Part shown: in pieces, positions 30,089 through 30,871 of the stretch | How positions within the stretch are numbered: the first letter of the stretch is position 1 | Layout of the letters: every line of letters starts with the position of its first letter | Assembly (NCBI GenBank): GCA_021732975.1 | Contig: JAKFWC010000023.1 | Location: 1-64,000 of the forward strand | Direction: 5' to 3' | From: Planctomycetaceae bacterium | Lineage (GTDB): Bacteria > Planctomycetota > Planctomycetia > Planctomycetales > Planctomycetaceae | Length of the DNA: 64,000 nucleotides | Position numbers and translations under genes: made by a program | The notes under the pieces: generated by a model | Seen by the model: only the letters and a program-made list of their open reading frames with translations | What the model was told of the DNA's origin: nothing | The model's database searches: none

Positions 30089-30128
30089 GGGTGGCCGGGG
30101 CTGGACGACCAACGGGAGGAAGCCCCGG
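30089..30128 (+). repeat. REP-like element flanking RAYT (left copy)
   Basis: GGGTGGCCGGGGCTGGACGACCAACGGGAGGAAGCCCCGG; exact reverse complement of 30832-30871; internal CCGGGGCT…AGCCCCGG stem. Confidence 0.93.
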
Positions 30129-30164
30129 TCAATCAACCACCGACTCCCATTCTTTCACTGACAG

Positions 30165-30743
30165 TCAAACAACCTCTTCCAGCCAGTCAAACGGAATCGG
30201 ATCCGGCCGCAACTCATTGAGTGGCTGCCCTTCAAACCATCCCGCACTCGACCATTTCCAATCCTTCGCTTGGGTGACCAATCCCTTCCGCACCGGATTG
30301 AGGTGAATGTAGTCGATCATGGTCCGCAGCGTCCGGCCCTGTTCGATGTTTCGATCATAGCCCCGCCCCGGCTGCCAGAAATGGTGTTCCACTTTTTGTC
30401 CTCGCTGGACGCGCAGCCGCGGTAACCATTCCGGAGCATGGGCCTTGAGATACGGCATCGCTTCACGGCTGACCGGTTCTTTGACCCGCTTCAAGAAATT
30501 CGAATCGTTGTAGCTCCGAGCGCGCGGCCACACGATGAGATGCACATGATCCGGCATGAAAACATAGGCCCACACGGCATAATTCAGTTCGTGACGAGCG
30601 AAATCAACCGCGTTCGCCAGCCATTCGCAACTGCGGTCCTTCGATAATAGCGGGTAGCGGCGATAGCACGAACAGGTCAACTTATGCGCGTGGCCGGGAT
30701 CGTTGTAACCCCGCGGGCGATACTGACGCAGGCGGTAGTCCAT
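30165..30743 (-). CDS. REP-associated tyrosine transposase (RAYT, Y1/IS200-like HUH family)
   Basis: HUH motif FMPDHVHLIVWP; Tyr region MIDYIHLNPVRKGLV; WKWSSAGWF. Confidence 0.93.
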   Translation of the reverse strand: MDYRLRQYRPRGYNDPGHAHKLTCSCYRRYPLLSKDRSCEWLANAVDFARHELNYAVWAYVFMPDHVHLIVWPRARSYNDSNFLKRVKEPVSREAMPYLKAHAPEWLPRLRVQRGQKVEHHFWQPGRGYDRNIEQGRTLRTMIDYIHLNPVRKGLVTQAKDWKWSSAGWFEGQPLNELRPDPIPFDWLEEVV

Positions 30744-30831
30744 GAAACGCTCCTGCGGACGTGGTTTCCAACGACTTCAGGAATCCACAAGAGCATGGCT
30801 CAATCGAGTAGGAAAGTCGGCGAAACGCTCG

Positions 30832-30871
30832 CCGGGGCTTCCTCCCGTTGGTCGTCCAGCCCCGGCCACCC
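30832..30871 (-). repeat. REP-like element flanking RAYT (right copy, inverted)
   Basis: CCGGGGCTTCCTCCCGTTGGTCGTCCAGCCCCGGCCACCC, 40/40 reverse complement of 30089-30128. Confidence 0.93.

What the first reader, a model, noticed from the sequence alone, without database searches (positions are those of the whole stretch)
30089..30871. REPtron-like unit: RAYT transposase bracketed by a perfect 40-bp inverted REP-like element
Seen: GGGTGGCCGGGGCTGGACGACCAACGGGAGGAAGCCCCGG at 30089-30128 is the exact reverse complement of 30832-30871, and each copy contains its own CCGGGGCT…AGCCCCGG stem preceded by GTGG. Between them lies one gene with HUH (HVHLIV) and Tyr (YIHLNPVRKGLV) motifs. Established: RAYTs are single-copy Y1 HUH enzymes flanked by inverted REPs in gammaproteobacteria, with a short 5' tetranucleotide recognised next to the hairpin. 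Inference: this is a planctomycete counterpart with GTGG as candidate guide.
Basis: partly seen in the sequence, partly recalled or inferred. Interest (0 to 1): 0.8.

Follow-up and report, generated by a model that had tools for sequence, protein, structure and literature searches.

The report
Planctomycete REP–transposase unit (REPtron)
A small single-stranded-DNA-cutting enzyme gene sits between two mirror-image DNA hairpins, and gene-less miniature versions of the same hairpin pair are scattered between genes of this planctomycete, so this is a member of the known REP/RAYT class whose relatives show the whole unit being copied and worn down into the miniatures.

Summary
A perfect 40-bp inverted repeat (30089-30128 / 30832-30871) brackets one 192-aa Y1 HUH gene on the minus strand (30165-30743). 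The protein passes NCBI's REP-associated tyrosine transposase (RAYT) cut-off, and its predicted fold matches E. coli TnpA-REP (4er8) best. The 40-mer itself occurs only here, but its GTGG foot plus 8-bp stem recurs with other loops. Own genome (65% complete): 19 stems, 17 of them at 11 intergenic loci, mostly as ~92-bp inverted doublets GGGTGG-hairpin...hairpin-CCACCC (REPINs). A same-genus relative keeps one arm at this locus but has lost the gene.

Genome G010 holds 516- and 224-bp units with RAYT scraps between the same ends, a series from REPtron (783 bp) to REPIN (~92 bp). In G010, G005 and G002 whole REPtrons exist as 86-95% identical paralogs whose homology stops at or within tens of bases of the feet, i.e. 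moved as units. REPtrons are known, also in planctomycetes (Rhodopirellula baltica), so the window element is a new member of a known kind.

The parts
30089..30871 (.). whole unit (REPtron), 783 bp, GGGTGG...CCACCC
   Evidence: perfect 40-bp inverted repeat at the ends; same ends bound dispersed REPINs and duplicated REPtrons of relatives
30089..30128 (+). left REP: foot GGGTGG, stem CCGGGGCT/AGCCCCGG, GGA/GGA internal loop, short upper stem CC-AACG-GG
30832..30871 (-). right REP, same sequence on the minus strand
   Evidence: one arm with part of the leader persists at the same locus in congener G001
30165..30743 (-). RAYT / TnpA-REP gene, 192 aa, Y1 HUH single-stranded DNA nuclease-ligase (predicted)
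   Evidence: NF047646 96.4 bits, cut-off 80; AlphaFold2 pLDDT 92.9; best PDB fold 4er8_A E=1.1e-8
30540..30548 (-). HUH motif H66-V67-H68
   Evidence: H66 invariant and H68 in 90% or more of 51 homologs
30297..30311 (-). Y motif Y145-I-H-L-N149 (Y---NP class 2 signature; Y145 predicted catalytic)
   Evidence: N149 and P150 invariant, Y145 in 90% or more; motif definition PMC6006769
30348..30377 (-). region equivalent to the E. coli guide-contact segment: W123-Q-P-G-R-G-Y-D-R-N132
   Evidence: aligned to E. coli WQPRFWEHAIR in 4er8; FWQxGxGYDRN conserved in this clade
30744..30831 (-). RAYT leader between the right REP and the start codon
   Evidence: sequence; its distal ~42 nt are kept beside the solo REP in G001

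Best explanation
This is a REPtron: one RAYT (TnpA-REP) gene bracketed by its own two inverted REP hairpins. The RAYT, a Y1 HUH enzyme, would bind the GTGG foot plus the bulged hairpin when that strand is single-stranded (for example on the lagging-strand template), cleave beside it, join the DNA through Tyr145, and excise and insert segments lying between two inverted feet. Substrates would be the REPINs (GGGTGG-hairpin-spacer-hairpin-CCACCC) scattered between genes of this genome. REPINs are miniature elements that arise when the RAYT between the two ends is deleted. Shown here by sequence: anatomy, family, shared ends and stem, intergenic REPINs at different positions in congeners, internal-deletion intermediates and whole-unit copies in relatives. 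Inferred: binding, cleavage, strand preference and present-day activity.
For: Family and fold. Inverted REPs at the ends. Nineteen stems in the genome against 0 for the reversed control; REPIN architecture; intergenic at 11 of 11 loci in this genome by a codon-usage gene model. The unit boundary is GGGTGG with random sequence outside in G003, and no 2- or 3-nt target duplication in 22 REPINs. Stem and RAYT go together: the closest RAYT relatives by identity (60-77%, all remnants: G010, G014, G016) lie in genomes that hold the same stem, beside related hairpins; all 3 fall among 8 stem-positive genomes of 59, P = 56/32509 = 0.0017 (my arithmetic). GTGG and GTGC are the commonest feet of convergent hairpins round RAYTs in a foot-agnostic scan. 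REPtron-to-REPIN series: G010 L131 516 bp and L133 224 bp with RAYT scraps between the same ends. Paralogous REPtrons in G010 (87% over ~805 bp), G005 (91-95%) and G002 (86%) with no homology beyond the ends. REPIN positions differ between congeners: only 1 of 11 loci shares flanks with a G001 REPIN, and one REPIN is absent from the orthologous gap.
Against: No biochemistry. The window RAYT is single-copy, and its REPs have a different loop from the REPINs, so it may not be the enzyme that made them. G001 and G003 keep REPINs of this stem with no such RAYT found, so REPINs can persist without it. The assembly is 65% complete, so another cognate RAYT could be missing. Cleavage position and dinucleotide are unknown; the simple cross-complementarity rule (GTGG to CC/CA, GTGC to GC/GA) did not show up as a flanking signature.
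Confidence: 0.88

Rival explanations
1. It is a still-mobile insertion sequence (IS200/IS605-like) that moves as a 783-bp unit, the hairpins being its ends, rather than a stationary domesticated REPtron.
For: Whole-unit paralogs, 86-95% identical, end at or near the feet in G010, G005 and G002; the same terminal GGGTGG bounds REPtron and REPIN.
Against: Single copy in this genome; the congener keeps a remnant at the same locus, so the unit has not moved recently. Y---NP motif and NF047646 match, not the IS200 model (19.8 bits, cut-off 55).
Confidence: 0.3
2. The REPINs were made by a different RAYT, and this RAYT acts only on its own two 34-nt hairpins.
For: The REPIN loops (31- and 28-nt hairpins) differ from the RAYT flanks and are shared with G001 and G003, which lack this RAYT.
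Against: Other RAYTs in the assembly carry unrelated hairpins (C18: CGTTCCCACGC). In G010 a RAYT remnant 60-68% identical to this one is bracketed by 28-nt hairpins, one of exactly the REPIN type (GGACCGAAGGGA). E. coli TnpA-REP puts only a non-specific structural demand on the loop (PMC8266576).
Confidence: 0.2
3. The hairpins are ordinary bidirectional terminators or a chance palindrome pair around a decaying transposase.
For: They lie between genes and form stable stems.
Against: No T-run or terminator call; the foot GGGTGG is invariant while stems vary; paired, oriented architecture; stem co-occurrence with closely related RAYTs; ORF intact.
Confidence: 0.03

Closest known systems
E. coli TnpA-REP (RAYT) REPtron with bulged REPs (PDB 4er8; subclass 2.2 / group 2)
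   Same: HUH-Y1 core, Y---NP motif, W-Q before the guide-contact segment, foot plus basal stem plus internal loop plus upper stem, inverted REPs at the gene, dispersed REP doublets
   Different: foot GTGG not GTAG; FWQxGxGYDRN instead of WQPRFWEHAIR; internal loop purine GGA/GA; 22% identity over the structural alignment
GTGG-footed class 2 RAYTs ('arcs a, b, c' of PMC6006769) and O. terrae GTAG-20 REPs (PMC3733652)
   Same: GTGG foot, non-proteobacterial hosts included
   Different: could not be aligned here; the window family's [DE]HVH + WQ + YIHxNP combination matches no single row of the subclass table
Rhodopirellula baltica RAYTs and REPs (PMC3733652)
   Same: planctomycete host, several RAYTs and flanking repeats
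   Different: sequence families not compared; no unit mobility or deletion series found in the parts of that paper read here
IS200/IS605 (IS608, ISDra2)
   Same: HUH-Y1 chemistry, subterminal hairpins with 5' guide tetranucleotide, no target duplication
   Different: Q in place of N after the Tyr, no tnpB here, below the NCBI IS200 cut-off
REPINs (PMC3116915)
   Same: inverted REP doublets as non-autonomous units
   Different: here intermediates still carrying RAYT fragments were found

Membership tests
RAYT / TnpA-REP protein (class 2 Y1) | HUH plus single Tyr with Y---NP motif; match to curated RAYT model | tested here: met
   (96.4 bits, cut-off 80), motifs, fold
RAYT / TnpA-REP protein (class 2 Y1) | foot-dependent single-stranded DNA cleavage and joining | not testable with these tools
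   needs purified protein
REPtron | RAYT gene flanked by inverted REPs with 5' GT[AG]G foot | tested here: met
REPtron | same REP type dispersed, mostly intergenic, in the host genome | tested here: met
   modest copy number (17 exact stems beyond the RAYT in 65% of a genome)
REPtron | usually one full RAYT per REP type, not moving as a unit | tested here: inconclusive
   single copy here with a remnant at the same locus in G001, but relatives G005, G010, G002 have whole-unit paralogs
REPIN | two REPs inverted, feet outward, short spacer, conserved as a unit | tested here: met
   (89-93 bp in G000, 91-93 in G001)
IS200/IS605 insertion sequence | TnpA-IS200 protein model / Y---Q motif | tested here: not met
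   NF033573 19.8 bits, cut-off 55; Asn at that position
Known RAYT subclass 2.1-2.8 of PMC6006769 | subclass motif combination | tested here: inconclusive

The most novel reading that the evidence does not exclude
Planctomycete REPtrons of this clade are whole mobile units: RAYT plus two REPs move as one element with the ends GGGTG(G/C)...(G/C)CACCC. REPINs are their internally deleted remains, so these genomes hold the missing series between IS200/IS605 insertion sequences, RAYTs and REPINs. The natural GTGG/GTGC switch of the foot between sister clades offers a ready-made test of guide-directed cleavage.
Probability: 0.5. Interest if true: 0.65.

Novelty: new member of a known kind. Interest (0 to 1): 0.5.

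Why it matters
How REPs spread, and how RAYTs relate to IS200/IS605 transposons, is unsettled. [quoted passage not shown] Here relatives carry several 86-95% identical REPtrons that end at or near the feet, plus half-deleted REPtrons with the same ends, which makes the proposed origin of REPINs by internal deletion directly testable. The extensive stem, loop and foot diversity of planctomycetes is also a natural data set for RAYT-REP recognition rules.

Tried and rejected
1) The 40-mer as a genome-wide repeat: unique. 2) Reading the guide rule of PMC8266576 (GTGG to CC/CA, GTGC to GC/GA) off the flanks: outside GGGTGG the flanks are random in G003, and in G002 the GTGC copies mostly end in GTGTGC; no matching dinucleotide, so no claim. 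The genome labels printed are wrong: the rows of the G002 regions are L289-L298 and those of G039 are L299-L308. 3) Target-site duplications: 0 of 22 at 2 or 3 nt (one of the 22 has an empty flank, and the script stopped at its last line after printing these results). 4) Foot type as one clade: GTGG and GTGC are clustered on the RAYT tree but need 9 and 12 changes, partly because automatic foot calls failed on some loci. 5) Exact empty-site junction of a REPIN: the G001 intergenic sequence is too diverged; only absence is shown. 7) Covariation statistics on stems were not used as evidence, because hairpins were selected for pairing.

Full report
Observation. The 40-bp inverted repeat is exact and the only inverted repeat of 12 nt or more in its neighbourhood; shuffled windows gave no match to its 36-nt core. 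The gene between the arms is on the minus strand, 30165-30743, 192 aa. It lies between an aspartate-kinase-like gene (28190-29983) and a hypothetical gene (30917-31627) followed by a biotin-synthase-like gene (names from my reading of the translations).

Protein. Pfam gives a sub-threshold Y1_Tnp match (22.3 bits, cut-off 23). The NCBI RAYT equivalog NF047646 matches with 96.4 bits against a cut-off of 80, while the IS200 model is far below its own; all 19 aligned relatives match the RAYT model. The only credible PDB sequence hit is 4er8, E. coli TnpA-REP. The AlphaFold2 model (pLDDT 92.9) finds 4er8 first (E=1.1e-8, TM 0.65/0.75), then ISDra2 and IS608 transposases. H66, H68, Y145 and N149 are conserved in 51 homologs. 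Of 772 database relatives (E <= 0.001) the nearest are 74-76% identical, mostly metagenomic, and the few that are named are called putative transposase or REP-associated tyrosine transposase.

Genomic REPs. The 40-mer is unique but the stem is not: 19 occurrences, reversed control 0. Seventeen lie at 11 other loci as inverted doublets, GGGTGG-CCGGGGCTGGA(31-nt hairpin)-spacer-(28-nt hairpin)-CCACCC; some partners are mutated. All 11 loci are intergenic by a codon-usage gene model trained on the window; the three 'overlaps' it reports for G001 and G003 come from stray 8-mer matches that widen the interval. The hairpins share foot, 8-bp basal stem, a GGA / GA purine internal loop and a short upper stem, the bulged design that E. 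coli TnpA-REP needs (PMC8266576). In G003 the sequence outside GGGTGG is random and no target duplication is seen, as expected for single-strand Y1 chemistry.

Who makes them. Of 60 genomes, 9 hold the exact GTGG-CCGGGGCT stem. The three other genomes with RAYT pieces 60% or more identical to this one (G010, G014, G016) are all among them, and the pieces lie beside hairpins of this design with compensatory stem changes (CCGGGCCT/AGGCCCGG, CCAGGGTT/AACCCTGG). A second stem, GTGG-CACGCCC, shows the same link with its own RAYTs. A foot-agnostic scan of 117 near-full-length RAYT frames makes GTGG and GTGC the commonest feet of hairpins pointing inward at the gene. On the RAYT tree the window gene falls in a mostly GTGG group.

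History of this locus. In congener G001 (biotin-synthase region 93-94% identical) one copy of the 40-nt REP and about 42 nt of RAYT leader remain next to the same hypothetical gene; the RAYT and the other arm are gone. So the REPtron was here before the two species split and was lost in G001, which still holds REPINs. Only one of 11 REPIN loci shares flanks with a G001 REPIN locus, with the two hairpins in swapped order; another is absent from the orthologous gap. REPIN positions therefore turn over within the genus.

Unit mobility and decay in relatives. In G010 two REPtrons (C128, C615) are 87% identical over about 800 bp and the match stops 1-6 nt outside GGGTGG and CCACCC. In G005 at least four copies are 91-95% identical, intact ends reading GCCGGGTGC...GCACCCGGC, with unrelated flanks; in G002 two copies are 86% identical over 733 bp, the match running up to about 40 nt past one foot. 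Segmental duplication would not be expected to stop at the feet repeatedly. In G010 a 516-bp unit holds RAYT residues 1-43 and 133-189 and a 224-bp unit only residues 157-189, both inside the same ends. With the 783-bp window unit and the ~92-bp REPINs this forms a deletion series.

Comparison with what is known. REPtrons, REPINs, GT[AG]G feet and RAYTs in PVC bacteria, including many RAYTs in R. baltica, are published (PMC3733652, PMC6006769, PMC3116915). The window element meets the defining features that could be tested. What I did not find in the papers read: whole REPtrons copied as units, half-deleted REPtrons, and GTGC feet. Bertels et al. 2017 did not turn up in the library searches, so unit duplication may have been noted there.

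Limits. Binding, cleavage and current activity are inferred. The genome is 65% complete. Whole-unit copying is shown in relatives, not for the window copy.

Noticed in passing
window 56849-56931: A second REPIN type, GTGC-CACTGGC...GCCAGTG doublet. 38 such hairpins in this genome, about 250 in congener G001, present in 36 of 60 relatives; no RAYT flanked by it was seen in G000 or G001, but G002 has two.
   Followed up: partly
window 32871-32980: A doublet CTCGTTCCCACGC...GCGTGGGAA / CGTTCCCACGC...GGGAACGAG, the hairpin type that flanks the other RAYT of this genome (C18:48793-49254, L063); a third REP family.
   Followed up: no
L050-L060, L239-L249 (genus of the window): Many REPINs of this genus have a further ~25-nt conserved stretch (CAGGGCCAACGCTTTAATCAAGTTG and variants) directly outside the 28-nt-hairpin end, not seen in G003; either a larger element or a preferred landing sequence.
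   Followed up: no
G003, G018; G001, G003: Sizeable REP populations (G003 51 and G018 28 CACGCCC hairpins; G001 and G003 CCGGGGCT hairpins) in genomes where no RAYT with that flank was found: orphan REPs that outlive their transposase.
   Followed up: partly
L239 vs L057: In the one shared intergenic site between congeners the REPIN has its two hairpins in swapped order, suggesting inversion of the core between the feet.
   Followed up: partly
L325 (G001:C15:35300-36000): Where G000 has a GTGG REPIN, the orthologous gap of G001 holds a different doublet, GTGCCACGGCCGTGTCGGCCGTG...CACGGCCGACACGGCCGTGGCAC: intergenic gaps look like shared landing sites for several REPIN families.
   Followed up: no
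L135 (G014:C541): A RAYT C-terminal remnant 77% identical to the window RAYT is cut exactly where a REPIN begins, i.e. a REPIN abuts or interrupts a RAYT gene.
   Followed up: no
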